Origin: a virus
IMG/VR virus record: IMGVR_UViG_3300045930_000172
Span: 1 to 27,331 of that record
Direction: 5' to 3' (one strand)
DNA length: 27,331 nucleotides
Of the stretch, positions 2,844-23,463 are shown piece by piece. Positions within the stretch are counted from its first letter, which is position 1; each line of letters begins with the position of its first letter. Both the position numbers and the translations under genes were made by a program. The notes under the pieces are model-generated. The model saw only the letters and a list, made by a program, of their open reading frames with translations, was not told the origin of the DNA and made no database searches.

Positions 2844-3471
2844 AGAGGCGCGTGTATTTGTAAAGCAGCGCGTTGACTGTCTCACCCATGGCCTTGATCG
2901 GTGAGCCACCGGAGTCACTGCTGCCTGAAGGAGCATCGAAAAACTGCACGCGGGTTTCGCGATGCGCGATTGATTTGATGCCGCTCACAGCTTCACGCGC
3001 CCCCTGGACGCGGGCGCTCTGAATCATCAGCAGTGCTGCCTGCTTGAGTGCAGGAGGTGCTTCGGCTGGCAGATTGTAGCCGCCCGTGTAGATCACCTGC
3101 ACCGGCTCAGCATAGCTGCCGAACAGCAGCAGCTTGCCTTCCGCATTGTCCAGTTCCCAGCTGCCGGTTTCGGCCAGCCCTGGAGCCAGGATCGTTTCGA
3201 TGTCCTCGTCCTTGGCGACTGGGTAGCGCGTCAAGTAGATGCGATTGCAGTCCAACACTGGCGTGTTGCCGCGCCAGATTTCGCGCACCTTCTCCTTGCC
3301 GAACACGCGATTGCACATGGTGGCAATCGTGTCGCTGTACTGGTCGATCAAAGCCTGCAGCTGCACGTCCTGTGAGGTGTCGGTGATTCCGAAATAGCCC
3401 TTCACCTCAGCCAGTGTCAGCAGCGCGTAGCTGCTGGCAGGCGTCAGGATTTTCACCGTTATGTCGGCCAT
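2836..3471 (-). CDS. Head-tail connector protein, HK97 gp6-like
   Basis: 211 aa; its ATG at 3471 shares one base with the TGA of the collagen-like gene (TGATG). The opening 'LLTLAEVKGYFGITDTSQDVQLQALIDQYSDTIATMCNRV' is the signature of the gp6/gp15-type connector: an LTLAEVK-like motif, then a D-x-x-L-x-x-L-I helix and a second long helix. These proteins form the ring below the portal. The middle holds beta strands ('VQVIYTGGYNLPAEAPPALKQAALLMIQ'), where the 'Y-x-G-G-Y-x-L-P' element followed by a helix is also typical. The C-terminal 45 residues are Gly/Ser-rich, then helical. Family assignment is fairly firm. Confidence 0.75.
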   Translation of the reverse strand: MADITVKILTPASSYALLTLAEVKGYFGITDTSQDVQLQALIDQYSDTIATMCNRVFGKEKVREIWRGNTPVLDCNRIYLTRYPVAKDEDIETILAPGLAETGSWELDNAEGKLLLFGSYAEPVQVIYTGGYNLPAEAPPALKQAALLMIQSARVQGAREAVSGIKSIAHRETRVQFFDAPSGSSDSGGSPIKAMGETVNALLYKYTRLYV

Positions 3472-4592
3472 CAGCGAGTCTCGATCTGGTACTGCTCGAA
3501 CAGCTCACGCAGCTCCATGGCAGGTGCTTCACTGCCATCTGTCATCACTGCGAAAACCTGGAATTCGTCACGATCAACGCGCCAGCTTGCAATGGCAGGA
3601 GCTGCTGGACCTGGTTGGCCGCGTGCACCTGGTGCTCCAGGATCACCCTTCGGCCCTTGCCCCCCTCGGCGGCCTTGGCGCGCAATCATCTGCCAGCCAT
3701 CACCTGGGCACGGACCTGGCTTGTCACGCACTGCGATGAAGCTGCCACCGTCACTGGCCACGATGTCCAGGCAGCGATACTCAGCCGCCTCGGCATAGAG
3801 GCCCTTCACCTCTGGCCACTTGGCATCACGCCCATTGCGACCGGCTGCAGCCAGCAAGGTCCAGCTGTCAGATGGCGGTTGCGTTGCGGTGTCGCGCTTG
3901 GCCTGGAAGGTGCAGCCATCCCAGGTGACCACGTCACCACGATAGTGCACCTCACCAGGTGCGAAGGCCTTGGCCTGTGGCAGCACACCAGGTGTGCCGT
4001 CCTTGCCAGGCTCACCGTTCTGCCCTGGTGCTCCAGGCTCACCTTGCGGACCTGGTGGCCCTTGCTCCCCAGCATGGCCTGGTGGTCCAGGCTCACCAGG
4101 TGGCCCTTGCGGTCCAGGCTCACCTGGCTGAGCTGGTGGCCCAGGAGGCCCTGCAGGACCAGGCGGGCCTTGCTCACCAGGTGGCCCTTGCTCACCTGGC
4201 TGAGCCGGTTCGGCAGGCTGGCCAGGCTCCCCGGCAGGACCTGGAGGCCCAGGTTCGCCCTGCGGCCCCTGCTCCCCTGGCTTGCCTGGCTCGCCCTGCG
4301 ATCCTGCTGGCCCTGCAGGACCTGGTGCCCCTGGTTCGCCGTTCTGCACAGCGGCCATGCGCACCTGGACAGTCTCAAGCATGGTGCCTCTGAACTGCAG
4401 CACCTCGGCCTTCAGCTCCGCGATCACCTGAGCTGCTTGTGCCTGGATCAGTTCACGCTCGCGCTGCCACTGCGCGCGCTCAGTTGCCAGCACCTCAGCC
4501 AGGGCTTCGCGCCAGGCTTCAAGCAGACAATCGGCGGCGGCCGATGCGGGCAGCGGAGGCAAGGAGGTTTCGTGCTTCCCGTTGGATGTCAT
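3471..4592 (-). CDS. Collagen-like virion protein with beta-rich modules
   Basis: 373 aa from ATG 4592, with AAGGA nine bases upstream. The frame is open to 4949, but the extension lies inside the portal gene. Residues about 20-75 form a helix rich in Ala, Glu and Gln, probably a trimerising coiled coil. Residues about 82-205 are Gly-X-Y repeats with GPAG, GEPG and GPPG units, as in bacterial and phage collagen-like fibres. Two related modules follow: '[14 protein letters not shown] ... [13 protein letters not shown]' and '[18 protein letters not shown] ... W-Q-M-I-A-R-Q-G'. These resemble small carbohydrate-binding-type modules that often flank phage collagen repeats. A second short collagen block and a 45-residue beta-rich end follow. 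It overlaps the portal gene by 74 bases. A capsid or neck fibre is inferred; no enzyme motif is seen. Confidence 0.75.
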
Positions 4593-5949
4593 CGCGGCGT
4601 TCCTTCTCAGGAGGAGGAGCTGCATCGCCAGATGCTTCAGCTGGAGGAGCTGCAGGCGGTGCACCAGGTCCAGGAGCTGACGGAATGCCTGCAGCTGCGG
4701 AGAGCGGCACCACCTGCTGCTGCACGCGCGGCTCGTCGCCAAATTCCACGCTGTCAAAGCCTTCGGCGTTGCGTGCTTCGTTGGGGGCGAAGATCCCGCC
4801 CTGCACGCCACGCGCCAGGGCCTCGATGCGATCCCGCATGGCACTGCGCAGCAGAGCTGCAGTGTCAAACTCCAGGTATTCGTCAGGCTGGCCGTATAAC
4901 TGAAACAGCAGGCCGAAAGCCTCCTCGATGTGATTGAGCGCGAAGCCAAGGCCGGTCGAAATCCAGGCCTGCATCAAGGCCTCGGTGGTGTTGAAGCCAG
5001 AGCTGCCCAGGCCCAGCACCTGCAGCGGAATGCGATACGCCAGCGCGATATTGTCATTCGACAGCTTGAGCATTTCGGCTGTCGCTGCATCCTTGCCGCC
5101 ATAGGACCAGGGCTGCACCTTCAGGCCTGCAGTGAGGATCGGCGTGCCGCCCTGGTGCAGGCCTGCAGCCTGCTCATTCCAACGATCACGCAGGTGCTGC
5201 ACGTCATCCTTGTCCAGCACTAGGTCGGTCGATAGCACTGCCGAAGGCCTGGCCTGGTTGGCATAGAACTGCATCTGCTGCTTGGCGATGGCGCTGGTCA
5301 CGGCCATGTCGTCATAGGCAGCGACGACAGGCGACTCTCCCACCAGCGGCTGCGGGTAGCGGTGGCGCGTGGTGTGCAGTCTGATGTGCAGCACATCACG
5401 TTGCGGCACGATGAGCTGGTAGCCGTTGAGGCGCTTGTCGATCACGTCATTGCCGCCGAGCTGGTAGAACACGTCACCTGTCTCGGCCACCAGTGGCGCG
5501 CACTGGTCCGAGTTCATCAGGTGCAGCTCATCAATCTCGAAACGGGAATTGCGGAGTGCGAGAGCGTATGCGTTGCCTTCGCTGTACAGCCAGCGCGTAG
5601 CGTTGAGCATGAAATCCGAAATGCTCTGATACAAATTCGGCTTGCGCAGAATGCGCGACAGTGCCGAGGTGGCCACGCGATCTCGGCCGCCCTTCTCGTT
5701 GGCGCGCCAGTGATCGCCTGGGCACATCGCCACGGTCTGGCTGTAGGCCGACACGCAGGCCTCCACCATGGCCGAGCGCGGCCCGTAGGTGGGGCTGATG
5801 CCGAGCTGCCACCAATTCCAGGGCGAACCAGCGGGCAGCACGCCACCTGTCACCGGCAAGAAATACGGCCCAGGGTGCGGGACACCCTCGGCTGCCTTGC
5901 CGATCAGCAGGCGTGCTGCCGCCCTGGTCAACCAGTTCAGCGGACTCAT
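4519..5949 (-). CDS. Portal protein, HK97 family
   Basis: 476 aa, about the usual length for HK97-type portals. The start ATG at 5949 overlaps the preceding stop (ATGA), so translation is probably coupled; no strong ribosome binding site is seen. Typical landmarks include '[17 protein letters not shown]' (about 65-80), '[11 protein letters not shown]', '[24 protein letters not shown]', '[15 protein letters not shown]', the '[12 protein letters not shown]' helix and '[14 protein letters not shown]' with '[26 protein letters not shown]'. The protein forms the dodecameric vertex through which terminase pumps DNA. The last 60 residues are Ala/Pro-rich and charged, probably disordered. The gene lies downstream of the capsid gene, whereas HK97-type phages usually place portal between terminase and protease. 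Confidence 0.9.
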
Positions 5950-6224
5950 GCTGCTGGAGTGGCTGCCCTGGTTTGATAGTTGCCGCGACCGCGCTTGTCA
6001 GCTTCGCTCTGCTTGGTCTGCGGCCCGTTTCCAGGCGGTGAACCATCTGGCTCGTGCTCCATGATGTGTTCACCACAAGCAGCGCGGTCGTTCTCCTCCT
6101 GCGTCGGCGTCGGCTTGGCAGCAGCAACAGCTTCACGCTGCTCTGCCGTCGCCTTGGCGTGCTCCTCGCGGCGCTTCTTTTCGTCCTCGTACAGCTTCTT
6201 CGCAGCTTCGTTCTGGTCGGCCAT
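5946..6224 (-). CDS. Small charged protein between capsid and portal genes, unknown
   Basis: 92 aa, ATG at 6224 preceded by AAGGAG at good spacing. Residues about 5-50 are a highly charged helix ('KKLYEDEKKRREEHAKATAEQREAVAAAK'). The rest is Gly, Pro, Gln and Lys rich and probably disordered. I do not recognise the family. It is the first gene after the hairpin that follows the capsid gene, and it ends overlapping the portal start. A minor head protein or assembly aid is possible but unproven. Confidence 0.6.
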   Translation of the reverse strand: MADQNEAAKKLYEDEKKRREEHAKATAEQREAVAAAKPTPTQEENDRAACGEHIMEHEPDGSPPGNGPQTKQSEADKRGRGNYQTRAATPAA

Positions 6225-6276
6225 TGGAGTCTCCTTGGTTGAAGGTCAAAAGGTGGTGACGTTTTTTCTGATTTGG

Positions 6277-6315
6277 AAAAGGAAGGCGACCAGGGTTTGT
6301 GTTGGGTCGCCTTCC
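6277..6315 (-). terminator. Hairpin after the capsid gene (probable partial terminator)
   Basis: On the minus strand GGAAGGCGACC (6315-6305) pairs perfectly with GGTCGCCTTCC (6291-6281) across a 13-base loop, followed by TTTTCC. The 11-bp stem starts 47 bases after the capsid stop codon, in the 137-base gap 6225-6361 that otherwise holds no gene. The T run is short, so it may let part of the transcripts through, setting capsid levels above those of portal. It could also be an mRNA-stabilising hairpin. Confidence 0.6.
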
Positions 6316-6361
6316 CCAGGTGCCTGGCAGCTGCCCGGACCCGAACCAGCTGCCGTGGCCC

Positions 6362-8506
6362 TTACCAGGTAACGCCCTGGACCCAGGCGACGGTGCCAGT
6401 GCGCTGCAACGTCCAGTTCACCGGCAGGATCAACCGCAGCGCCAGGCTGTCAGTCTGGAACATCGAGCGCGTGGGAGCTGCCACGACACCTGGTGTGCCA
6501 ACCGTGCCGATCTGCGCCGGGTTGGTGTCCTCCATGTGGAGGGTTGCCTGGTCGCTCACCTCGAAGCGCGGAGCCTCGGCACCGACCGAAACGAAATCGG
6601 CGGCGTCGAGCGCAATCACCGTGCCAGCCGGCACATGGCCGCTGTCGATGATTGGCCAGCCAGACATGCTGCCTGCCCGCACTTCGTCGCGGAACGGGAA
6701 GGCACCGCTGTTCGGCCCGACCGTGAATCCGATGCTGTTGAGCTGCTGCGGATTCATCAGCCAGACAGGATTGCGCAGATTGCCGTTCGTGCCAGTGAGC
6801 AGCGCGGCAGTGATCTGCTTGATGTCACCGACCAGGGCGTTGAAGCCGCCGCCGGTCGTGGCCGTCAAGGCTGCCACACCGTACAGGATGCCAGCAGGCC
6901 GGATTGCTGTGTCAACGTTGGCGTCGAGCAGGACAGAATCGAGCGAAACTGACGTGTCCTCCTGGATGCAGTTGCGCAGCAGCGGTTGAATTGCGGGCGT
7001 GCTGTGTTCGTCAATCTCCCTGGTCCAGGTGGTGATGACGCCCATTTTTTTCGGCAGCAGCGTGACCGCCGAGAATGCAGCCATCCGCACCGGGATCGGA
7101 TTGCCTTCACCGACGAACGAGCCAGCGATGGTCGGCGTGGTTCGGCGCGTCGGCACGACGAGCTTGCCATCAGCTCCGAATGTCACGCTGGTGCCCATGC
7201 CAGCCAGGCGCGGATACACCGCTTTCGGCTGCAGCAGTGGCAGGAAGCCGAGATTGCGCTGACTGACCAGTTCAGCTGCCCAGTTCGACGGCCCAGCTCC
7301 AGTCGTCGTTGCTGGCACGGTGGCGGCCTTGGTAATCAGCTCCTGGACCAGGCGAATTTCGTGATCTTCGCCGAACAGGAGATGGATCGCCTCGGCCTCT
7401 GATTTGCGTTGCGAAGCCGCGAGCATCTTGGCCATGCACATCCTGGTGTACACGTCCATGATGTCCACGGCCTTGCCATTCGTGAACGGCTGGCGCGGCT
7501 TGGCCGGAACAGTGCTCGGCCTGGTCTGCACAGCACCGCCGCGTGCCACCGGCACCGGCAGCTGAGCCTGCACCTGAGCTGCTTGTGCAGTCTCACCGAG
7601 GCGGGCTTCGTTGTCCTTCAGCATCTGATGAAGGGCAGCCTCGCGGTCGATCTTGTCCTTCAGCTCCTTGTTGGTTTCCAGGTCCGCGTCGGTGACGTTG
7701 TTATCGTCAATCAACTCGGTGTGCTTCTGCAGCTCATCACGCGCTGCATTCAGACGCTGCTCGGCGTCTGCAATCCGTTGTGCTAGCGACGACATTGTTT
7801 TGATCCTTGTGGGAGGGGTTTCGGCATGCTTGCCGCGATCCCCGCGCCGCACGATGCCGCCCCGTGCGCCATGCTTGGCGAAAACGGCATCGAGTGTTGC
7901 GGGGGAAATCTTCAGTGACTTGGCGATGGCCAGTGCGTTGGGATTTGCTGGCACTGCGACGATGCTTGTCTCAACCAGCTTTTGCTTGACGTAGAAGGAG
8001 CCGAAATCGGTTTCCTCGCGCGGCCTGGTTTCGATGGGCTTGAAGCCCACCGAGGCAGCTTTCAAAATTCCGGCCTCGACCAGCTTGCGGATTTCGTCAA
8101 CGCGATCTGATGTGCCGAGCGGCGCTAGCTCCAGCTTGCCGCGCAGCTGCTTGCCGACGACGCGCACGTTGGTCCAGGTGCCGATGATGAAATCGGACTG
8201 GTGACTGAACAGCGCAATCGGGTTTAGCTTGAACTCCTCGAGCTGCCAGCCGCTCGACAGGATGATGTCGTCCATGCGGTCAGGCGTTTCATCTGACAGC
8301 ACGAACTCCAGGCCATCCTGCTTGGCTGCAGGCTTCCGCTTCCTGATGATGCCGTCCGCGCTGCGCTCATCCCAAATGATTTCGCAGGCTGTCTCGTCGC
8401 CCAGCTCATCGACGCAGCGATCCATGAAATCGTCGAAGGTTTCGTCATCATCAGGCGTGATTTCACGCGCGACGACGCAGCCGCCGTCGAGGACGTGCTT
8501 GGTCAT
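6362..8506 (-). CDS. Fused prohead protease and major capsid protein, HK97 type
   Basis: 714 aa, ATG at 8506 with AAGGG upstream. Residues about 60-200 are the HK97-type prohead protease: His102 ('LFSHQSD'), Ser152 ('KAASVGF') and Glu179 ('LVETSIVAVPANPNA') fit the catalytic triad. Residues about 238-310 are a coiled coil ('AQRIADAEQRLNAARDELQ') equivalent to the scaffolding delta domain. A linker of about 60 residues and the HK97-fold capsid domain follow ('VPTRRTTPTIAGSFVGEGN', 'KKMGVITTWTREI', 'PAGILYGV', 'PVWLMNPQQLNSIG'). Protease and capsid are normally separate genes; here they form one open frame, a fusion known in some phages. An internal ATG at 7795 (residue 238), with AAGGA eight bases upstream, could start the scaffold-capsid part alone. 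Self-cleavage would release the coat protein. Confidence 0.9.
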   Translation of the reverse strand: MTKHVLDGGCVVAREITPDDDETFDDFMDRCVDELGDETACEIIWDERSADGIIRKRKPAAKQDGLEFVLSDETPDRMDDIILSSGWQLEEFKLNPIALFSHQSDFIIGTWTNVRVVGKQLRGKLELAPLGTSDRVDEIRKLVEAGILKAASVGFKPIETRPREETDFGSFYVKQKLVETSIVAVPANPNALAIAKSLKISPATLDAVFAKHGARGGIVRRGDRGKHAETPPTRIKTMSSLAQRIADAEQRLNAARDELQKHTELIDDNNVTDADLETNKELKDKIDREAALHQMLKDNEARLGETAQAAQVQAQLPVPVARGGAVQTRPSTVPAKPRQPFTNGKAVDIMDVYTRMCMAKMLAASQRKSEAEAIHLLFGEDHEIRLVQELITKAATVPATTTGAGPSNWAAELVSQRNLGFLPLLQPKAVYPRLAGMGTSVTFGADGKLVVPTRRTTPTIAGSFVGEGNPIPVRMAAFSAVTLLPKKMGVITTWTREIDEHSTPAIQPLLRNCIQEDTSVSLDSVLLDANVDTAIRPAGILYGVAALTATTGGGFNALVGDIKQITAALLTGTNGNLRNPVWLMNPQQLNSIGFTVGPNSGAFPFRDEVRAGSMSGWPIIDSGHVPAGTVIALDAADFVSVGAEAPRFEVSDQATLHMEDTNPAQIGTVGTPGVVAAPTRSMFQTDSLALRLILPVNWTLQRTGTVAWVQGVTW
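7795..7812 (-). promoter_or_regulatory. Internal ribosome binding site and start for the scaffold-capsid part
   Basis: On the minus strand AAGGA lies eight bases before ATG 7795-7793, in frame with the capsid ORF. It sits exactly between the end of the protease domain and the first residue of the delta-domain coiled coil (MSSLAQRIAD). This is where a separate capsid gene would begin. It suggests two products from one frame; this has not been tested. Confidence 0.55.
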
Positions 8507-9236: not shown

Positions 9237-9539
9237 CTATCTCCTGTTGGCCGGATGCTTCGGATCGGTCGGCCAGCCATCGGCATCAACCTCGTCGGTG
9301 TAGCCGCGATGTTCGATGGCTTGCTTTTGGTTGCTGTGGCAGGAGCTGCAGAGGCTCTGCAGATCGCCCAGCGAAAACAGTGTCCAGTTGCCTTTGTGCG
9401 GAATGACGTGATCAGCCACCGTGGCGCGCGTGACCACTCCGCGGTTCAGGCAGAACTTGCACAGCGGGTGATGCTTGAGCTGCAGCGTGCGTCGGCGTTG
9501 CCATCGCGCCGTGTCGTAGAACCGCTGCCAGTCTCTCAT
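9237..9539 (-). CDS. HNH endonuclease, terminase-associated
   Basis: 100 aa. The ATG at 9539 overlaps the terminase stop (ATGA). A Zn-binding HNH module fills the protein: 'CKFC' (about 27-30), the 'ADHVIPHKG' D-H motif (about 42-50), then 'DLQSLCSSCHSNQKQ' with the second Cys pair and the Asn. HNH proteins next to terminase genes (HK97 gp74 type) are established as partners of the large subunit in cos-type DNA cutting and packaging. In HK97-like phages the HNH gene is often near the small subunit; here it directly follows the large one. Catalytic residues appear intact. Confidence 0.88.
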   Translation of the reverse strand: MRDWQRFYDTARWQRRRTLQLKHHPLCKFCLNRGVVTRATVADHVIPHKGNWTLFSLGDLQSLCSSCHSNQKQAIEHRGYTDEVDADGWPTDPKHPANRR

Positions 9540-11200
9540 CCGATCAGGGCCTCGATGTCCACCGGCCTGGCGCCCTTGCGATCACGCGAGCGCAAGCCCA
9601 TCAGCATCGCGAGTGCCACCGCGCCGTCGATGCGGAAGCGTGCCTTGTCCTTGTCCAGCTTGCGCAGGCCTGCAGGGTCCATCGCAGCCACTGCGTTTGC
9701 GATGTTCCAGTTCAGCACTGGATTGTTGGAATGGATCAGCGTGCGATCAATCACGGCACGCTCCAGGGCATCAATGGCTGGCCCCATGTCCTTGAAGCCT
9801 TGGCCCCATGGCACCAGGCGCAAGCCATCAGTGAGGCGCGGCCTGGCTCCCAGGGTGACGCGCTGGAATTTTTCATCAGGCTCCTTGCTTGGGTCCTCGT
9901 AAGCCTGCAGGCCGATGCGGTCGAACTCGCGCAGCAGGTCCTGGATGCGCCAGCGGTCATACGCCATGCCCTTGACGCGGTAACGCTGCGACAGCTCAGC
10001 GATGAACAGCGCGACCACTTCGGGATTGATGGTGCGGCCAGGTGAGGCCAGCAGGTGGCCTGCCTCCAGCCATTCGACGTAGCGGAACGTGCCAGTGCCG
10101 AAATCCCGCTGCGATTGTTCGCGCAGCAGGTCCTTCGGCTTCCAGAAATACGGCACGATGCGGCACGGATCAGAAGCTGAGCCGACCAGCAGTGCTGTCA
10201 GGTCCAGCACGCTGGACAGGTCCAGTGCCAGGTACACCTCCTCGCCTTCCTGCAGCTGCACCTCACCAGCACAGGCCATCCATTCAGAGCGCGACAGCAG
10301 CGCAGACACTGGCGCGATGCGCTGGTTCAGGAACAGGTTGCGCACCTTCGGCTCCTCGGCAGGCATGCGCTTGGCCTTCCGAATGGCCGCCACCAGGTCC
10401 TCGCGGTCGCGAAACTTGCCGAGCGCCGGATTGGCCTTGCGCCATTGCCGCTCATCGCCCAGGTCGCAATCCTCATCGGCTGCGTAGAGGTGGCAGACGA
10501 TGGTCGGATCTACACCTGCCTGGCCGTCATCAATCAGCTGGCTCAGGATGTGCTCAGGGTCATTGCTCTGCGTGCTGATGGTGATGAACAGCGGCTCATC
10601 GCGAGCGCCGAATGCAGTGTCCATCACATCGTACAGCGTGCGATTTTTCGCCTGCGCCAGTTCATCGTAGATCACCAGGCTGGGCATATAGCCGTGCTTG
10701 GTGCCAGCCTCTGCACTGATCGCTCGGTAGATCGAGCCAGTGCGCCTGGCGATCATGGTCTTGGTCGAGGCCACGATCTCCAGTTCGCCGCGCAGCTCTG
10801 GCTCCAGCTCAACAATCTGCCTGGCGAACTTGAACACGATGGCTGCCTGGTCGCGGTCATTGGCAGCTGAATAGATTTCGCCGTGCACGATGGCCTCTGG
10901 ACCGATCAGGTGTGCCAGCGCCAGCGTTGCGATCAGTGCGGTTTTGCCATTCTTGCGCGCCACCGAGAGGATGGCACGGCGCACCGCACGATTGCCGTTC
11001 GGCATGTGCGGCTCGTAGATGTCGCGAATGAATTTCTTTTGCCAGGCATCCAGCTTGAACGGTTTGCCCTGGCCCTTGCCACTGGGCACGGTCAATCGCT
11101 GGATGAAATCAATGACCAGTTTCGCACGCTGTCTGCCTCGCGGCGTGCGTCTAACTTGCGAGGAGGCCCGCAAACTTGCTCTGTTGTGCTTCGCCAACAC
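9536..11200 (-). CDS. terL: Terminase large subunit, Terminase_1 type
   Basis: 554 aa. ATPase half: Walker A 'VARKNGKT' (about 80-87) and Walker B 'LVIYDE' (about 175-180). Nuclease half: acidic residues in 'LALDLS' (D327), 'AYDRWR' (D415) and 'RIDGAV' (D525), matching the three metal ligands of the RNase H-like fold. It packages DNA into proheads and cuts concatemers. The frame opens at GTG 11200, overlapping the small subunit gene by 50 bases with no clear ribosome binding site; a TTG about 30 bases later is another option, so the first 10-20 residues are uncertain. Together with the P27-type small subunit and HNH this forms a typical cos-packaging set. Confidence 0.93.
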   Translation of the reverse strand: MLAKHNRASLRASSQVRRTPRGRQRAKLVIDFIQRLTVPSGKGQGKPFKLDAWQKKFIRDIYEPHMPNGNRAVRRAILSVARKNGKTALIATLALAHLIGPEAIVHGEIYSAANDRDQAAIVFKFARQIVELEPELRGELEIVASTKTMIARRTGSIYRAISAEAGTKHGYMPSLVIYDELAQAKNRTLYDVMDTAFGARDEPLFITISTQSNDPEHILSQLIDDGQAGVDPTIVCHLYAADEDCDLGDERQWRKANPALGKFRDREDLVAAIRKAKRMPAEEPKVRNLFLNQRIAPVSALLSRSEWMACAGEVQLQEGEEVYLALDLSSVLDLTALLVGSASDPCRIVPYFWKPKDLLREQSQRDFGTGTFRYVEWLEAGHLLASPGRTINPEVVALFIAELSQRYRVKGMAYDRWRIQDLLREFDRIGLQAYEDPSKEPDEKFQRVTLGARPRLTDGLRLVPWGQGFKDMGPAIDALERAVIDRTLIHSNNPVLNWNIANAVAAMDPAGLRKLDKDKARFRIDGAVALAMLMGLRSRDRKGARPVDIEALIG

Positions 11201-11645
11201 CGGCTGCGATGCGGCTGCGTGCTGCTGGTGTCATGCCGAACTCGGATGCGTAGCGGCACATATCGCCAGCAGCCTTCCTGGCAATCGACAGCAGCGGATT
11301 GATGTGAGCCTGCTTGTCGCGCTTCACCAGCAGGCCCTGGAAAACCGGATCGCCGCTGCGCATTTTGGCCAGGGCTTCCTCAGCCATCTTCCAGGTGCCG
11401 TAGGCCTGGGAGTAGGCAGCCAGCGGCCCATAATCGACAATGGTGAGCAGCCCCAGGCGGTGCAGCTCCAGCACGATGCGGTGCCACTCATCCTGGCCAT
11501 ACGGGCACAAAAAGTCGGGCGGCTCTGGCACGTCATCAGGGATCAGCGGCCTCGGCTCGTCGTAGCTCAGCTTCTTGTGTCCTGGATTGCCGCGCAGCAC
11601 CTGCAGGTGCGTGGGGATCGGGCGCGGTCCTCGCGGGCCACTCAT
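11151..11645 (-). CDS. terS: Terminase small subunit, P27 family
   Basis: 164 aa, ATG at 11645 with AAGGAG at good spacing; the start overlaps the stop of the glycosyltransferase gene (ATGA). The N-terminus 'GPRGPRPIPTHLQVLRGNPGHKKL' is the hallmark of P27-type small terminases (PT-x-L-x-x-L-x-G-N-P). Next come 'PPDFLCPYGQDEWHRIVLELHRLGLLTIVD' and 'LAAYSQAYGTWKMAEEAL', the usual helices, and 'NPLLSIARKAAGDMCRYASEFGMTPAARSRI' near the end. The protein recognises the packaging site and loads the large subunit. Assignment is firm. Confidence 0.92.
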   Translation of the reverse strand: MSGPRGPRPIPTHLQVLRGNPGHKKLSYDEPRPLIPDDVPEPPDFLCPYGQDEWHRIVLELHRLGLLTIVDYGPLAAYSQAYGTWKMAEEALAKMRSGDPVFQGLLVKRDKQAHINPLLSIARKAAGDMCRYASEFGMTPAARSRIAAGVGEAQQSKFAGLLAS

Positions 11646-12550
11646 GTGCGTTGCTCCTTGTTCAGCTTCACTGCACCGTAGCGTTCAGCCATCAGCTGCA
11701 GGCCGTACTCGTTCACGCCGACTGGTCGCTCCAGGTCCTTGCGCAGCAGCAGCTTGTTGCGCTCCTGGAATCGGCTGTAGTCCACGAAGTGGTGCCAGCG
11801 GTTGAATTTCCAGACCACCTTGGCGACGTCAGGATGCAGCTTCACCAGCACCTTGCTCTTGAGCAGCGTGCCGTCTTGATAAATCTCGTCGGTGTTGCCG
11901 CCTGCCATCTTCTGCGTGGCGATCTTCTTTTGCAGGAAGGCGTAGAACTGCACCGTGCACCAGCCAGCCTTGAGACAGCGCAGGCTCAGGTCAGTGTCCT
12001 CGTTGTAGCGGCTGCGCCAGCGAAACGGCAGGTCGTTGCGGATCAGAATGCAGCTGTAAATTCGCGTATTGAACACCAGCGGAGCGAACTTGGTTTTGCG
12101 CGGCGCAAACATTTCATAGGCAGGGCCAGCCATCGCGACGTTGCGATAGCGCAGACAGAAATCCTCCATCGCACGAAAGTGAGTGCCGTCGCCAAGCGAA
12201 GTTTTCTGGTTGCGGTTGAGGCGATAGAAGCCGCCGATGTTGTCATCCATCACCCAGTGCCAGGCATGGCCTTCGCTGATGGAATGCTCCCAGGCGCAGT
12301 TGCGAGCTGGCCCGGATCCTGTGCCAAGCCCCTGGGCATCACCATCAGGGTCGCAAGTGTCGAAATTCTTTTTGAAGGCTGGATCGAGCACCAGCAGCTT
12401 GCTGCGATCAATCACTGCGGCGTAGCTGTCCAGCTCCTGCGGCTCCACGATCACGCGATAGGGCACACCCATCGCGTCCAGGTGGCGCATGGTCAGGCGG
12501 CTTGCTGCTCTGCCCTTGCTCGGAATGTAGATCGGGAATTGCGGATTCAT
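11642..12550 (-). CDS. Glycosyltransferase of TET-associated (TAGT/GREB1-like) type
   Basis: 302 aa. The ATG at 12550 overlaps the stop of the 61-aa gene (ATGA), with no independent ribosome binding site. The fold is GT-A-like: 'IYIPSKGRA' (7-15), 'YRVIVEPQE' (31-39), 'GPARN' (80-84), the metal-binding '[16 protein letters not shown]' (99-114, DDN at 102-104), '[17 protein letters not shown]' (181-197) and '[15 protein letters not shown]' near the end. This pattern matches the phage glycosyltransferases described beside TET/JBP oxygenases and related to human GREB1. Those are predicted to put sugars on hydroxylated bases in phage DNA. No oxygenase or methylase is visible here, so the acceptor is unknown; another macromolecule could be modified instead. 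The C-terminal coding end carries the ribosome binding site of terS, tying its expression to packaging. Confidence 0.7.
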
Positions 12551-12732
12551 CCTGCGTAATCGCGCCGCCTGCGATCAGCACGCTCAGCCAGCTTGTCGTA
12601 CTCATCAGCAATGCGCAGCATCGCAGCCTTGGCTTCGCGGTCTTTCATATCTGCGGCCAGGGTTCTCATTTGCTCAGCCCGCTTGCGCCAGTGTGCCGGG
12701 TTGCGGATCGGATTGCTGCTCTGCTTGGGCAT
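12547..12732 (-). CDS. Small helical protein, rhizobial type, unknown function
   Basis: 61 aa from ATG 12732; the frame is open to 12891, but those codons lie inside the radical SAM gene. It overlaps the end of the radical SAM gene by 59 bases and its stop overlaps the glycosyltransferase start. The core '[42 protein letters not shown]' is two amphipathic helices. I associate this pattern with a very common short protein family of rhizobial chromosomes whose function is unknown to me. Its capture between two modification-type enzymes may mean it is a subunit or regulator, or only a host gene picked up by the phage. Confidence 0.7.
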
Positions 12733-13777
12733 TGGCTGACCTGTCGAAGCGGCCGACAGCAGGATCAGCCTCAAGGGGCCGCCAGGTCTGGCCATTCCAG
12801 AAGCGATCAACTTGCTTGTCGCTCCAGTGTTTGAAATCGCAGCGGCTGAACGTGATGTTGCACTTGCGGCAGGCGTAGTCAGTATCGGCACGGTTTTTCA
12901 GACGCAGGCGGCGGCGCACCGTCTGCATTTCCTCGCCATACCAAAACGCCATGAAGCCTTCAGCACCTTCATTCACATTGCCGAATTTGCCTTCACTCTT
13001 GTGCATTCCATCCTGGCAGCACAGCAGGAAGGCACCAGAGGCGGCGACCGTGACATAGAGGAACGGCTGATTGCAGCGCCTGGCCAGCGGCTGCTCCAGG
13101 GGCTTCATGCCGAAGCGTTTGCCAGCATCCCAGTCCAGATTGCCATACCAGTTGCCCAGCAGACCGGCGCGGTAGCGCGACTTCGGCCAGCGCGTTGGTT
13201 CATCCATCAGCACGATCAGCTTGGTTTTCGGCCCGTAATATTTCCAGGGCGTGGGTGCGAACTCAGGGGCCACGCACTTGCCGCTGGCTTCGTTGTAGTA
13301 GGCGAAGAACGGATACTTCGATTGCGCAGCCAGCTTGTGGAAGCGCGAGCGCGGCCCGTACATGTCGGTGTAAATGATGTTCGCCCCTGCATCCAGGAAG
13401 CCATCGTAGGTCACGTCACCTGTCAGCAGCTTGGTGCCGTTGGTCGTGATTTGAATTTGCACCAGTGGTGCCAGCTCACGCGCGATCCTCAGCCAGGCTG
13501 TCAGCTGAGGATGCAGGGTCGGCTCACCGACGACGCCGCAAATGTCAACGCGCACGGTGGGTGAAACCTTGTTGATCGTGGTGAACAGCTTGCGCCAGGT
13601 CTGCTCGCTCATCTGGTGTTCGTTGTGCTTCTCAATCAGCCCAGCACAGCAGTGGCCGCATTTCAGATTGCAGCCATAGACTGGCTCGATCACCCAAACA
13701 TTTGGCGAAGTGCTACCCAGCGGCTTGATCTTCTTTTGATGGCCGAAGCCCTTGGTGATCGCAGGCCAGTTGAACAT
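12674..13777 (-). CDS. Radical SAM enzyme with SPASM-like Cys-rich C-terminus
   Basis: 367 aa. ATG 13777 shares a base with the preceding TGA (TGATG), and AGGGGG lies six bases upstream. The radical SAM motif C-x3-C-x2-C is at Cys36, Cys40 and Cys43 ('GCNLKCGHC'). 'VVGEPTLHP' (82-90) is the GGE-like SAM-binding segment, and '[11 protein letters not shown]' follows as strand 4. The C-terminal part has Cys235 ('RRCNQP'), Cys253-254 ('LLCCQD') and Cys303, 306 and 313 ('[11 protein letters not shown]'), consistent with an auxiliary Fe-S cluster (SPASM or twitch type). The last 40 residues are polar and overlap the next gene. The enzyme would cleave S-adenosylmethionine to start radical chemistry. 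The substrate is unknown; neighbours suggest a nucleic-acid base or a peptide in a modification pathway. Confidence 0.85.
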
Positions 13778-14469
13778 CAGCGGCCCCCTGAGTTGGCCTG
13801 GAGCAGCTCGGCAACTGGAGGCAGTTCATCGCTGCCCTTCTTGGCCTTGAACTGCTGGGCGACGTAGCTCTGTCGATCAGCGCGCGGAAACCAGAGAAAC
13901 TTCGTCTTGTCGCTCATGTCCTGCTGCACCAGGTGGCAGAATTGCTTGACGGCCTCAGCATCCTTGAAGTGAAGCATGATGGTGCGAAAGGCCTCAGCAC
14001 TGTTCTGCTCGTACTCAGGCATGCCAACGTATTCGCGGATCGGATCATTGGCAGGTGCAGTGAGCTGCTCAGCCTCTACCTGGGTGAAGCCTGTCAGGTC
14101 AGTGTCGAAGCCCAGGGTCTGCAGTTCATTCAGCTCCAGCGTGAGCATCGCGGAATCCCAGCTGGAATTTTCTGTGAGCCTGTTATCGGCAATGCGGTAG
14201 GCACGAACCTGGGCTTCGCTCCAACCACGAGCGACCATGACTGGCACCTGATCCAGCTTTAATCGCTGTGCAGCCAGGACTCTCCCATGCCCAGCGATGA
14301 TCTCCCCACGCTCATCGACCAGGACCGGCATCGTCCAGCCCCACTCCTGAATCGAGTCGGCCAGCTGCTCAATCTGAGCGTCAGAGTGAATGCGAGCATT
14401 CCTGGCCGATGGAAGCAGCTCAGCGATTGCACGCCGCTCCACATGGTCTGCAGGCCATTTCACAGTCAT
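13777..14469 (-). CDS. ParB/Srx-fold protein with a separate C-terminal domain
   Basis: 230 aa, ATG 14469 with AAGGA at good spacing; first gene of the leftward late operon. Residues about 12-110 are a ParB N-terminal (ParB/sulfiredoxin) domain: 'NARIHSDAQIEQLADSIQEWGWTMPVLVD', the nucleotide-binding 'AGHGRVLAAQRL' (GHGR 60-63) and 'AYRIADNRLTENSSWD'. Such domains are often fused to DNA methylases in phages. Here the second part (about 148-205) is instead 'MPEYEQNSAEAFRTIMLHFKD ... KTKFLWFP', a small domain I have seen following phage ParB-like domains. No methylase motif (DPPY or NPPF type) is present. No helix-turn-helix of true ParB partition proteins is evident. A role in nucleotide binding or DNA modification is inferred from domain and neighbours. 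Confidence 0.8.
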   Translation of the reverse strand: MTVKWPADHVERRAIAELLPSARNARIHSDAQIEQLADSIQEWGWTMPVLVDERGEIIAGHGRVLAAQRLKLDQVPVMVARGWSEAQVRAYRIADNRLTENSSWDSAMLTLELNELQTLGFDTDLTGFTQVEAEQLTAPANDPIREYVGMPEYEQNSAEAFRTIMLHFKDAEAVKQFCHLVQQDMSDKTKFLWFPRADRQSYVAQQFKAKKGSDELPPVAELLQANSGGR

Positions 14470-14763: not shown

Positions 14764-15210
14764 ATGACGACCATTCTCAAAGGCCACACCTCGCCAGAGA
14801 CTGCGTACCTGGTCAGCGACTATCCCTATGGCTTCAAGCTGCGCTGCTCCATCCGCTACTGGATTGAGTATGCACCAAAGAAGGGATTTCGGTTTGTCTC
14901 ACAGACCACCAACCCGAAGCGCGGCAATGTTTGGAACAAGCCCAAGGCTTCCACTTACTGCAAGTTCGGTGGCTGCTTGTTCATCAATGATGAAGGCCAC
15001 GTCACCTGGTCTGGCCTGACTGAATACTGCAACAGCCAGGAGGCACAGGCCTTCCTCAACACCTATGGCGCAGGTGTCCCTGAGGCTGGCTTGCCAGTGC
15101 TGCGCAAGTGGGTTGCTGCCAAGGTGGCCTATGACAGCAATCGCCAGTCAGATGATCCACTCCATGTCGGTCTGCCTGAAGCCCGCAAAGCCTTCAGCGT
15201 GACGGAGTGA
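14764..15210 (+). CDS. Conserved-looking phage/plasmid protein, unknown function
   Basis: 148 aa, ATG 14764 with AAAGGA upstream. The protein is soluble with no signal peptide: 'KGHTSPETAYLVSDYPYGFKLRC', 'GFRFVSQTTNPKRGNVWNKPKASTY', 'WSGLTEYC', 'LPVLRKWVAAKVAYDSNRQ'. I recognise this as a type of protein seen in proteobacterial phages and plasmids, but I know no function. It is the first gene after the candidate promoter. Its stop is close to the ribosome binding site of the next gene, so the two are probably cotranscribed. Dense aromatic and Cys content suggests a compact fold. Confidence 0.75.
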   Translation: MTTILKGHTSPETAYLVSDYPYGFKLRCSIRYWIEYAPKKGFRFVSQTTNPKRGNVWNKPKASTYCKFGGCLFINDEGHVTWSGLTEYCNSQEAQAFLNTYGAGVPEAGLPVLRKWVAAKVAYDSNRQSDDPLHVGLPEARKAFSVTE

Positions 15211-15212
15211 CC

Positions 15213-15533
15213 ATGCGCACCTTCATCACTGCTGCAGCTCTGGCACTGCTGGTGCACTCAGCACAGGCTGCGCCCTTCACCGGCAATGACCTGGTGCAGG
15301 AGTGCGAAGCACAGACTCCGATGTGCACTGGCTTCCTGCTGGGCGTGTCCGACATAGCCCTTCAGCTCAAGGCCGTTTGCGTGCCAGCTGCATCAACCAA
15401 CCAGCTGCGCGCTGTCGTGCTGAGCTATCTGCGAAAAAATCCAAATCGCTGGCATGAGAACGCAGCCAGGCTGGTGCGCTTGGCTCTGCTTGATGCCTGG
15501 CCCTGTTTTGACCTGAGTGAGCCAAAGCCATGA
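15213..15533 (+). CDS. Rap1a/Tai-family-like exported protein
   Basis: 106 aa from ATG 15213, with GGAG five bases before it; a GTG at 15207 overlaps the previous stop but leaves no spacing for that GGAG. Residues 1-20 are a signal peptide (MRTFITAAALALLVHSAQAA), probably cleaved after AQA. The mature part has 'FTGNDLVQECEAQTPMCTGFLLGVSD', 'AVCVPAASTNQLRAVVLSYLRKNP' and 'ENAARLVRLALLDAWPC'. This Cys pattern and the 'C-T-G-F-x-x-G-V-x-D' motif match Rap1a/Tai proteins, known as periplasmic immunity proteins against type VI secretion amidases. In a phage it may protect the host from rivals or act on the envelope. Its stop overlaps the next start (ATGA). Confidence 0.75.
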   Translation: MRTFITAAALALLVHSAQAAPFTGNDLVQECEAQTPMCTGFLLGVSDIALQLKAVCVPAASTNQLRAVVLSYLRKNPNRWHENAARLVRLALLDAWPCFDLSEPKP

Positions 15534-21082: not shown

Positions 21083-23023
21083 TCAAAGCCACTGATGGCG
21101 GCTGTCATAAACAGCCTGCAGCTGTTGCTCGGTCAAATCCTCCACGCGCTTGCCAAAAATTCTGTAGATCCGACGACCACGTTCCTTGATCATGTCTGAG
21201 GCTGCAGGATCATCGCGCCTGTAGCCGGTGCGTTTGCAGCTTTCGATGACAGTGCGCAGCCTGGCTTCACGTTGGCTCGGCGTCATGATCGGCTCAGCCT
21301 CGGCCTGCTGTTGCTGGGCCTGTGGCCGAATTTTTTGCGCATTCATTGCATCAAAAAATCTTTTCGCAGGTTCAACTCCAATCGCGCCGAACAGACCAGC
21401 ATCACGCAGTGCTGCATCAATGTTATTGTGGTCGGTGTCCTCGACTGGAGGACTGTCGAACGTATGTGTTGATGCGTTCGTGATGCCCGACTCGATTGGT
21501 CGCGTGCGCGTTCCCTGACCGCCGCCGCCAGCTGGTGATTGGCGGATTTGGTCATCCACGAACGGCGCCTGGTTCGCGCGGATTTCCTCCATGATGTCGA
21601 TGAAAAACTGATCACGCGGTGCAAAGATCGTTGCGAACTGTTGCTCCCAAGGGAGGCCATGGCGATCAAAGCGCGAGACGCGATGCAGCATCTGCTCGAT
21701 CCATTCGCGCGATCGAATGTGGGTCAAGCAGCACAGAACATCGGCAGGCGGACAATCCATCCCGATGTAGGCCATGCCCACCGTGACCAGTGCATTCAGG
21801 TGCGGCCGTCTGACGCGCCGAAACCGCTCAATCGCAAATCGTGCTGCGTCATCATCCTCGCTTGTTGCAATGTCCACGCCCTTGACGCCGCGCTGGATCA
21901 ACAGCCGCAAGGCCTTCTGTGCTGATGCGATGGACGGACAGACGACCAGGAATTGTGAACGCTGGTTGACCTGCCGCCTGGCTTCCCAGTAGTCACAGGC
22001 CTCGGTTAAAAGTGCTTCAAAAAATTCAGTGTTAAGCGCACTCATCAGGCCTTTGGCTGTCTCGTACTCTGATGCACCTGCAAAGGTCTTGATTGCTCCC
22101 TGATCAACCACATCGCCAGTCAGACTGTCCTCGATTTCCCACTTTGCCTTGGCATCACGCAGCTCGAAAAAAATCTGGATCAGCTGATGATCGCGCGTAG
22201 CATCGGCAAGCGTGTATCGGACAAAGCGTTGTGTGCTGCTGTCGGACAAATCAACGAAGCAACGCATGTCCTTGTCTGGCGGCAGATATTGCAGCAAGGC
22301 AATGCGCTCGTCGTCATTGCGGCTCAAGCAGCCGCTGACCATGACGACGATTGCTGCCCGTTCAATCAGCGGCTTCAGCGCCTCATGAGTTTGGCTGTTG
22401 AGTGCTACGCACTGAATTTCGTCCAGCAGCAAGATCATTCGCTTGCGGTTGAACACATCAACGTGCGGATTGAGTTTGTATCCGGTGGCCCGGATCAAGG
22501 CCTGGTAGCTGGTGCAATAGCCGACCTTGTCGCGAATCGGATCAGCCTCATTGGTGGCCGACCTAATCTCCATGGTGTGGCCCAACACATTTCGGAGCCA
22601 CGGAGCTGTGAAGTTGCCTTCAGCCTGCAGCCTCAAATTGTCGCGCGGAACAACCCAGCACAGCCCATCGGCGCGATAGGGTATCAGTTCATGAGCTGCA
22701 ATCGGTGGGTAGATGCTTTTGCCGCCGCCGCACACGATGGATGCCAGAACCGTGCGCAGCGATGTACCAACTTTCAACTCGCGGCAGATGTCCTGAAATT
22801 GCTTTTGGTGGCTCAGCAGCATTGATGTGCCTTTTTTTAGATTGCACTCGATACAAGCGAGACGGCCGTTCTCATCGACCGTAGGTCCTGCTCGCGAAAA
22901 CGGCTGCGCATGGTCGGCATGGAAAGCAGCAGCACTGACTGGTTTGTCGCAATACTCACAAAGCCCATCGGCCCGCAGATAGATTTCCGTTCGTTGTCGT
23001 TTTGAAAAAAATCGCGGCATCAC
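21083..23023 (-). CDS. HNH nuclease fused to SF2 helicase
   Basis: 646 aa. Either GTG 23023 (GTGA overlap) or ATG 23020 (TGATG overlap) starts it just at the stop of the VRR-NUC gene. Residues about 10-65 are an HNH module: 'CEYC' (22-25), 'HADHAQPFSRAG' (D37-H38), Asn52 and 'CIECN' (57-61). Residues about 75-460 are an SF2 helicase: motif I 'CGGGKS' (98-103), motif II 'DEIQ' (201-204), motif III-like 'MVSGC', motif V 'VTVGMAYIGMD' and motif VI 'HRVSRFDRHG' (447-456). The C-terminus has a Gln-rich linker and a basic helical region. It may unwind and cut DNA during phage replication or recombination. The HNH domain seems intact, so both activities are plausible. Confidence 0.85.
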   Translation of the reverse strand: MMPRFFSKRQRTEIYLRADGLCEYCDKPVSAAAFHADHAQPFSRAGPTVDENGRLACIECNLKKGTSMLLSHQKQFQDICRELKVGTSLRTVLASIVCGGGKSIYPPIAAHELIPYRADGLCWVVPRDNLRLQAEGNFTAPWLRNVLGHTMEIRSATNEADPIRDKVGYCTSYQALIRATGYKLNPHVDVFNRKRMILLLDEIQCVALNSQTHEALKPLIERAAIVVMVSGCLSRNDDERIALLQYLPPDKDMRCFVDLSDSSTQRFVRYTLADATRDHQLIQIFFELRDAKAKWEIEDSLTGDVVDQGAIKTFAGASEYETAKGLMSALNTEFFEALLTEACDYWEARRQVNQRSQFLVVCPSIASAQKALRLLIQRGVKGVDIATSEDDDAARFAIERFRRVRRPHLNALVTVGMAYIGMDCPPADVLCCLTHIRSREWIEQMLHRVSRFDRHGLPWEQQFATIFAPRDQFFIDIMEEIRANQAPFVDDQIRQSPAGGGGQGTRTRPIESGITNASTHTFDSPPVEDTDHNNIDAALRDAGLFGAIGVEPAKRFFDAMNAQKIRPQAQQQQAEAEPIMTPSQREARLRTVIESCKRTGYRRDDPAASDMIKERGRRIYRIFGKRVEDLTEQQLQAVYDSRHQWL

Positions 23024-23463
23024 TGCACGCTGACCTTGCTCTGCAGGATGCCGAGCTGCTTCAGCCAGTCGGCCGCAACGCGCACGTTGTCAGTGACCAG
23101 GTAGGGGAAGCCGCAGGCCTGCAGGTGGTTGCCGACATCAATCTGAGCTGGCGTTCGCCCGCGCCCTTTGCGCTTCAGCTCCAGCCAGGCGATGCCGCGA
23201 TTGGGTCCGGTGAACACCAGGTCGGGATAACCTGGCACAGCTCCAGCTCTGCTCAGCCTGCTGCCTGATGGGGAGATCCGACGCCCATCGCGGATGATGT
23301 GCTCGCGCTGCTCACCAGCTGGCCAATGCGCAACGCGCCAGCCTGGCATCATCCAGCGGCGCGCTATGTCAACTAGCCAGCACTGGGTTTCAAATTCGAG
23401 TGGGGCTGGAGGCTCCACACCGAGTTGTCGGCGGCCTTTGAACAGCGACAGTTGCCGCGACAT
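23020..23463 (-). CDS. VRR-NUC domain nuclease
   Basis: 147 aa, ATG 23463 with GAGG at good spacing. The PD-(D/E)XK-type VRR-NUC core is complete: Glu24 ('LEFETQ'), Asp81 ('PGYPDLVF'), Glu95-x-Lys97 ('WLELKRK') and Gln107 ('RTPAQIDVGNHLQACGFPYLV'). Stand-alone VRR-NUC proteins in phages are thought to be structure-specific nucleases that resolve branched DNA, a job otherwise done by RusA-type enzymes. Its stop overlaps the helicase start, so the two are made together. Confidence 0.88.
   Translation of the reverse strand: MSRQLSLFKGRRQLGVEPPAPLEFETQCWLVDIARRWMMPGWRVAHWPAGEQREHIIRDGRRISPSGSRLSRAGAVPGYPDLVFTGPNRGIAWLELKRKGRGRTPAQIDVGNHLQACGFPYLVTDNVRVAADWLKQLGILQSKVSVQ

What the first reader, a model, noticed from the sequence alone, without database searches (positions are those of the whole stretch)
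11642..14469. Four-gene modification-type cassette coupled to terminase: ParB-like, radical SAM, small helical protein, TAGT-like glycosyltransferase
The genes are joined by TGATG, a 59-base overlap and ATGA, and the last overlaps terS by ATGA, so all should be made together with the packaging motor. Two members look like enzymes for nucleic-acid modification: a glycosyltransferase of the family found beside TET/JBP oxygenases, and a radical SAM enzyme with an auxiliary cluster. The ParB-like protein is of a kind often fused to DNA methylases. Yet no oxygenase, methylase or thymidylate-synthase-like gene is visible to make an acceptor base. Either that step lies outside the window or the radical SAM enzyme supplies the acceptor group. 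Late-operon location suggests modification near packaging, perhaps as defence against host nucleases.
Basis: partly seen in the sequence, partly recalled or inferred. Interest (0 to 1): 0.85.

Follow-up and report, generated by a model that had tools for sequence, protein, structure and literature searches.

The report
Phage sugar-transferase with dedicated tether domain
This phage carries a sugar-transferring enzyme of a family known to decorate virus DNA, always made together with a small undescribed partner domain that looks like a tether to DNA, plus a radical enzyme that probably alters the sugar; nothing visible makes the usual attachment point on DNA, so the chemistry is likely new.

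Summary
In detail: ParB_N, radical SAM/SPASM and TAGT glycosyltransferase genes, translationally coupled to terS. The four-gene reading needs redrawing. (1) The real core is the glycosyltransferase plus a ~70-residue domain, here called MPEF, at the C-terminus of the 'ParB-like' protein. It matches no Pfam or NCBIfam model. It lies fused to, or directly upstream of, this TAGT clade in 86 of 89 viral loci (the other three are cut contigs), and a reverse search seeded with MPEF led back to the TAGT. (2) ParB_N is one of several exchangeable N-terminal parts; stand-alone MPEF proteins instead carry clamp-binding-like peptides (QxxLF, or PIP-like in T4-like phages). (3) The radical SAM enzyme is optional but specific to these phages and has re-associated with the TAGT several times. 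(4) The 61-aa protein is not conserved. A 59.8-kb contig that contains the window exactly shows no hydroxymethylase, TET or methylase elsewhere; thymidylate-synthase-type genes are absent from 50 of 50 relatives tested. Best reading: a DNA-tethered glycosyltransferase acting on phage DNA, with the radical enzyme tailoring the sugar. DNA as substrate is supported by family and context, not shown. Interest about 0.7.

The parts
14191..14394 (-). ParB_N domain (residues 26-93) of the 230-aa protein; keeps the GxxRxxA-type motif (GHGRVLA) and IADNR; no HTH or C-terminal ParB domain
   Evidence: Pfam PF02195 3.5e-7; motif in most relatives
13840..14043 (-). MPEF domain (residues ~143-210, '..EYVGMPEYEQ...IMLHFKDAEAVKQFCHLVQQDMSDKTKFLWFP..'), undescribed obligate partner of the TAGT
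   Evidence: home-made HMM, E 1.9e-23 on this protein; found with TAGT in 86/89 loci; no Pfam or NCBIfam match
13777..14469 (-). whole ParB_N-MPEF gene
12674..13777 (-). radical SAM/SPASM-type enzyme; CX3CX2C (C36, C40, C43) and auxiliary-cluster cysteines (C235, C253/C254, C303, C306, C313) conserved among 10 relatives
   Evidence: no NCBIfam equivalog above cut-off
12547..12732 (-). 61-aa helical protein, no relatives found outside this phage; accessory or unrelated
11642..12550 (-). TAGT-family (PF20691) glycosyltransferase, domain at residues 5-218
   Evidence: GT-A fold predicted for homologue L008
11151..11645 (-). terminase small subunit, ATGA-coupled to the GT gene
9536..11200 (-). terminase large subunit

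Best explanation
A DNA-tethered glycosyltransferase module that decorates the phage's own DNA. The TAGT (a GT-A enzyme using a nucleotide sugar) works as a complex with the MPEF domain, which docks on it (inferred from obligate pairing, fusions and a confident fused model). Whatever is attached N-terminally to MPEF brings the complex to DNA: clamp-binding-like peptides in replication-linked phages, a ParB_N domain in terminase-linked phages such as this one. The radical SAM enzyme is an optional tailoring enzyme of the same product, most likely altering the transferred sugar (oxidation, epimerisation or the like). The product would mask phage DNA from host nucleases. Shown by computation: families, pairing, fusions, contexts, absence of known acceptor makers, motif enrichment. 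Inferred: DNA as substrate (about 0.6), MPEF as tether subunit (about 0.5), rSAM acting on the sugar (about 0.45), protection from restriction (about 0.5). The acceptor on DNA is unknown.
For: GT is TAGT at 1.4e-39; T6 TAGT is a DNA glucosyltransferase (PMC13216743) and lies beside a gp42-like gene in my control. Aeh1ORF087c, an MPEF-GT fusion, is listed as a presumed DNA modifier of 'unknown base' (PMC8056088). MPEF is fused or immediately upstream in 86/89 GT loci, and the GT is downstream in MPEF-seeded loci. The MPEF-GT fusion folds with pLDDT 90, pTM 0.88, MPEF alone with pTM 0.33, in keeping with folding against the GT. Neighbours: terminases/portal for the ParB type (TerL within four genes in at least 8 of 17 loci), DNA methyltransferases, DnaB, primase, SbcCD, ERF for the solo type. 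QxxLF in the first 30 residues of 8/34 solo MPEF proteins versus 12/1392 other ORFs (Fisher 4.5e-9); PIP-like motif in 9/12 T4-like ones. T4 alpha-GT binds the gp45 clamp (PMC13216743). 10 of 11 rSAM records hold the GT, unlinked in one jumbo phage; rSAM joined the GT in at least 4-5 steps with uncorrelated identities, r=0.16. The slot between MPEF and GT otherwise holds FkbM and class-I methyltransferases, GT4 and a second TAGT-like GT. Nearest solved rSAM relatives are tetraether synthase and the aminocyclitol dehydrogenase BtrN.
Against: No acceptor-making enzyme was found, so a sugar on DNA has no known handle. T4 relatives without genes 42 and 56 (Aeh1 and 65 among them) were thought to lack major cytosine modification, from restriction sensitivity of some of them (PMC2993671). 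GT-A enzymes with similar folds act on peptides too: the best Foldseek hit is the glycocin S-glycosyltransferase ThuS, at a low TM-score of 0.34. Clamp motifs are short and the sequences are related by descent, so shuffles overstate certainty. The window's own protein has no clamp motif, and DNA binding by its ParB_N is assumed.
Confidence: 0.5

Rival explanations
1. The radical SAM enzyme makes the acceptor: it puts a hydroxyl, amino or alkyl group on a base, and the TAGT then glycosylates it.
For: No other acceptor maker in the 59.8-kb contig; rSAM tightly tied to the GT. A jumbo phage with rSAM and MPEF-TAGT also has a Tet_JBP / amino acid:DNA transferase / P-loop kinase set, so this rSAM can occur in a phage with base hypermodification.
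Against: The TAGT clade mostly lacks rSAM, including the closest relatives L014-L020 with 71-72% identical GT, and there the acceptor is missing too.
Confidence: 0.2
2. The target is a protein: the TAGT glycosylates MPEF itself, a terminase or capsid part, or a host protein bound by MPEF.
For: An obligate small partner next to a GT-A enzyme resembles GT-substrate pairs; the fold search ranks the peptide S-GT ThuS and protein GTs high; no DNA acceptor is known.
Against: The characterised family member acts on DNA (PMC13216743); neighbours are DNA-handling genes of many unrelated kinds with no constant protein target; clamp-like motifs and ParB_N point to DNA.
Confidence: 0.2
3. Surface polysaccharide modification (seroconversion) that blocks superinfection.
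For: A nucleotide-sugar epimerase family matched by two neighbour proteins and GT4 genes near others.
Against: No flippase or O-antigen genes seen nearby; neighbours are packaging and replication genes; found in T4-like phages too.
Confidence: 0.05
4. A RiPP-like pair: the 61-aa protein is the substrate of the radical SAM/SPASM enzyme.
For: SPASM enzymes often mature peptides; the two genes overlap by 59 bases.
Against: The small protein is absent from all other rSAM loci; rSAM falls below every NCBIfam maturase cut-off.
Confidence: 0.03

Closest known systems
T2/T6 beta-glucosyl-HMC-alpha-glucosyltransferase (T6 TAGT, PF20691)
   Same: Same Pfam family; GT-A fold; phage gene; DNA-related surroundings
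   Different: T6 TAGT is distant (4.8e-11 to the model versus 1e-33 to 1e-57 for isolates of this clade), stands beside a gp42-like hydroxymethylase gene, works after alpha-GT (PMC13216743), and no MPEF was found at its locus
Aeromonas phage Aeh1ORF087c and other 'solitary TAGT' phages (288 of 753 phage genomes, PMC13216743; PMC8056088)
   Same: Aeh1ORF087c is an MPEF-TAGT fusion of the same clade; earlier authors predict DNA modification of an unknown base
   Different: The MPEF partner, the ParB_N form, the rSAM form and the tether motifs were not found described in the papers held
T4 alpha-glucosyltransferase bound to the gp45 sliding clamp
   Same: Works like it in the proposed tethering of a DNA glycosyltransferase to a clamp
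   Different: GT-B fold, and the clamp is bound by the enzyme itself; here the contact would be made by a separate domain or its tail
ParB_N-DNA methyltransferase fusions of phages (phrog_498)
   Same: ParB_N placed beside a DNA-modifying enzyme (phrog_498 E 1.9e-47 over the ParB_N half)
   Different: Here ParB_N is fused to MPEF and paired with a GT, no methylase
Radical SAM enzymes with a SPASM/twitch auxiliary cluster (BtrN, GDGT-MAS)
   Same: CX3CX2C and auxiliary cysteines; best PDB matches 3.4e-9 and 1.8e-9
   Different: Forms its own phage-linked family, nearly absent from 84,980 species genomes (one phage-like contig)

Membership tests
TAGT (PF20691) | Match above curated cut-off over the whole model | tested here: met
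   136.6 bits versus 27.5, model 1-205 of 205
TAGT (PF20691) | GT-A fold | tested here: met
   homologue L008: pLDDT 90, Foldseek hits are GT-A enzymes; the window protein itself was not folded
TAGT (PF20691) | Genomic partnership with TET/JBP or with hydroxymethylase plus alpha/beta-GT | tested here: not met
   Tet_JBP 1/50, Thymidylat_synt 0/50; none in G001
TAGT (PF20691) | Transfers sugar to DNA | not testable with these tools
   reported for T6 (PMC13216743), not for this clade
MPEF-linked TAGT clade (defined here) | MPEF domain fused or immediately upstream | tested here: met
   window residues 143-210; 86/89 loci. In the window one rSAM and one small gene lie between the two
Radical SAM superfamily | CX3CX2C cluster motif | tested here: met
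   C36, C40, C43 invariant in 10 sequences
SPASM/twitch radical SAM | C-terminal auxiliary-cluster cysteines | tested here: met
   PF13186 1-67 of 67, 4.3e-7; C235, C253, C254, C306 invariant, C303 and C313 nearly so
Canonical ParB partition protein | ParB_N followed by HTH and dimerisation domain | tested here: not met
   only ParB_N matches; below the TIGR00180 cut-off (34.7 versus 58.45 bits)
Canonical ParB partition protein | CTP-binding GxxRxxA motif | tested here: met
   GHGRVLA in the window, similar in most relatives
Sliding-clamp-binding protein | QxxLF-type peptide | tested here: not met
   absent from the window's ParB_N-MPEF type (0/17 non-redundant); present in 9/34 non-T4 solo MPEF proteins

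The most novel reading that the evidence does not exclude
A widespread, undescribed class of phage DNA glycosylation that needs no hydroxymethylated base: a TAGT that works only as a complex with a dedicated tether domain, loaded on DNA by a sliding clamp (replication) or by ParB_N (packaging), with radical SAM tailoring that yields a nucleoside not seen before.
Probability: 0.3. Interest if true: 0.9.

Novelty: new variant of a known kind. Interest (0 to 1): 0.7.

Why it matters
A 2026 study notes that 288 of 753 phage genomes have a TAGT without the glucosyltransferases it is thought to follow, and calls them potential novel transferases (PMC13216743). This work gives a class of such TAGTs a signature, an undescribed partner domain, and a test: isolates such as Aeh1 and Vibrio phages 1.076.O and 1.124.O carry it. 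If DNA is the target, the acceptor chemistry is unknown, so new modified nucleosides and new DNA glycosyltransferase tools are likely. The clamp-like motifs also suggest a way in which DNA modification is tied to replication or packaging.

Tried and rejected
Relatives of the rSAM in 50,697 phage records: none at 1e-5. Small protein in plasmids: none. MPEF against Pfam and NCBIfam: nothing above noise; its stand-alone fold model is too weak to interpret, and its fold search found only unnamed phage proteins. GT against PDB sequences: none. RiPP reading rejected because the small protein is not conserved. Capsule/LPS reading rejected on neighbourhoods. A loose 'QTLGF' match in the window ParB_N-MPEF protein was discounted: it lies in a stretch conserved in the ParB_N part of relatives. 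The idea that rSAM and GT simply descend together was rejected: their pairwise identities do not correlate.
Full report
Setting. The window is a whole IMG/VR contig of 27,331 bases. A second contig, G001 (59,828 bases), contains it base for base at 21247-48577, so the surroundings could be read. It is a tailed phage with Mu-like baseplate genes and an ERF recombinase, and an ORF at G001 50840-52084 (minus strand) that by eye reads like a tyrosine recombinase.

Check of the observation. The four genes, junctions and neighbouring terminase genes are as described. Family assignments are firm for TAGT (1.4e-39), good for radical SAM plus SPASM (2.5e-9, 4.3e-7) and for ParB_N (3.5e-7). L012, from another phage, has ParB-MPEF, rSAM, GT, terS and terL in the same order, so the arrangement is conserved. 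The 61-aa protein is not: it has no relative in any other rSAM locus.

The missing piece: an obligate partner domain. Among 89 viral loci with a GT of this clade (near-duplicates included), the C-terminal ~70 residues of the window's ParB-like protein recur as a separate domain (consensus W..EW.GMPEF.Q......R....F..eeD...F..liGQ.iT.KTKSIWyPk). It is (a) a stand-alone protein of about 75-130 aa, usually overlapping the GT gene by a few bases, (b) fused behind ParB_N as in the window, or (c) fused to the N-terminus of the GT itself. It is present in 86 of 89; in the other three the contig is cut at or near the GT start. In two of the six the contig ends, one is a contig already scored, one has the GT as its next ORF, and the last two yielded a GT in a later call. 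No Pfam or NCBIfam model covers it. Isolates carry it too: Aeh1, POP12, PTm1, Kuja, Vibrio 1.076.O, 1.124.O and henriette. At the T6 TAGT locus none was found. I call it MPEF after its motif.

Fold. A homologue with both domains fused (L008) folds with pLDDT 90 and pTM 0.88, a GT-A enzyme by Foldseek. The MPEF domain alone folds poorly (pTM 0.33). This fits a domain that is stabilised by the GT, though the stand-alone model used fewer sequences.

Where it is found. ParB_N-MPEF loci are flanked mainly by terminase subunits, portal and HNH genes (TerL within four genes in at least 8 of 17 non-redundant loci); stand-alone MPEF loci by DNA methyltransferases including MT-A70, DnaB, primase, SbcCD, ERF and integrase. 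These are DNA-handling modules, unlike polysaccharide clusters.

Tether motifs. In non-T4 stand-alone MPEF proteins, the bacterial clamp-binding motif QxxLF lies in the tail ahead of the domain in 9 of 34, against 0.2 expected from shuffles; within the first 30 residues it is in 8 of 34 against 12 of 1392 other ORFs (Fisher 4.5e-9). LF followed by G or a polar residue is in 23 of 34, against 2.3 expected. In the T4-like group, whose clamp is PCNA-like, a PIP-like [ST]LxxF(F/L/M) is in 9 of 12. T4 alpha-GT binds the gp45 clamp (PMC13216743). The ParB_N form lacks QxxLF (0 of 17) but keeps the nucleotide-binding motif GxxRxxA. From established knowledge, chromosomal ParB forms a CTP-dependent clamp on DNA. 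I infer that these N-terminal parts are alternative ways to hold the GT on DNA. This is a hypothesis from motifs.

The radical SAM enzyme. Relatives were found in 11 viral contigs and one contig assigned to a Desulfosporosinus genome that looks like phage (an ORF that reads like a sliding clamp, then MPEF, GT and rSAM in a row). Ten of the 11 viral records also hold the GT; in a 305-kb jumbo phage the two lie about 160 kb apart, with the GT again an MPEF fusion. On the GT tree rSAM needs at least four or five gains or losses, and rSAM and GT identities are uncorrelated (window versus L003: rSAM 70%, GT 47%; L010 versus L189: GT 70%, rSAM 49%). So the enzyme has repeatedly joined this GT and works with it, yet most of the clade does without it. 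The slot it occupies in the window otherwise holds FkbM or class-I methyltransferases, a GT4 or a second TAGT-like GT, which look like tailoring enzymes. I therefore prefer action on the sugar; action on the base is the main rival.

The acceptor. T6 makes hmC with gp42, next to its TAGT. Here neither the window nor the rest of G001 shows a comparable gene. Thymidylate-synthase-family genes were absent from 50 of 50 related records, Tet_JBP present in one, C5-methylase in one of 48; many records are fragments, but several exceed 80 kb. Some larger isolates do have thymidylate-synthase-family genes, which may be ordinary thymidylate synthases; the 47-kb Vibrio phages have none. Petrov et al. (PMC2993671) state that T4 relatives lacking the gene 42/56 network probably lack major cytosine modification. 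Hence the mark may be sparse, on another base, or not on DNA.

Relation to the known. The GT is a TAGT by sequence and fold. It fails the family's usual genomic partnership, and its activity is untested. Its Aeh1 member was already predicted to modify DNA at an unknown base (Iyer et al. 2013, cited in PMC8056088). New here, as far as the held papers show, are the partner domain, its three architectures, the tether motifs and the rSAM association. Verdict: new variant of a known kind, interest 0.7.

Noticed in passing
G006 (L208:1287-4376), 305-kb jumbo phage contig: Tet_JBP, amino acid:DNA transferase (ADDT) and P-loop nucleotide kinase in a row, the known kind of thymidine hypermodification set, in a phage that also has the rSAM and an MPEF-TAGT fusion elsewhere.
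   Followed up: partly
L191:4879-5091 (Aeh1ORF086c) and L193:4831-5028 (POP12_147): A second, short MPEF-like protein directly downstream of the MPEF-TAGT fusion; T4-like fusions also show a partial second copy, as if the domain worked as a pair.
   Followed up: no
window 23020-23463, minus strand: A small protein (reads like a VRR-type nuclease) begins MSRQLSLFKG, a textbook clamp-binding motif.
   Followed up: no
window 21083-23023, minus strand: HNH endonuclease domain fused ahead of a superfamily-2 helicase-like region.
   Followed up: no
window 15207-15533, plus strand: One of the scanned window genes matches the Rap1a immunity family (E 6.7e-18), probably this small exported-looking protein; odd in a phage.
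   Followed up: no
L137:4233-5288, L167:1003-2067, L178: About 350-aa protein, without a Pfam match for L137, inserted between MPEF and TAGT in T4-like phages, in the slot where the window has the rSAM.
   Followed up: partly
L029-L034, L053-L069: Marine phages with an MT-A70 adenine methyltransferase directly ahead of the MPEF-TAGT pair.
   Followed up: no
L035:3634-4779 and 5558-6940: Two further radical SAM-like proteins around a ParB_N-MPEF gene ahead of the TAGT, the second of another radical SAM family by its length and layout: rSAM enzymes may have joined this system more than once.
   Followed up: no
window 3471-4949 (minus) and 3414-4937 (plus): Collagen-repeat protein overlapping the portal ORF; the long plus-strand ORF there is probably its antisense shadow.
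   Followed up: no
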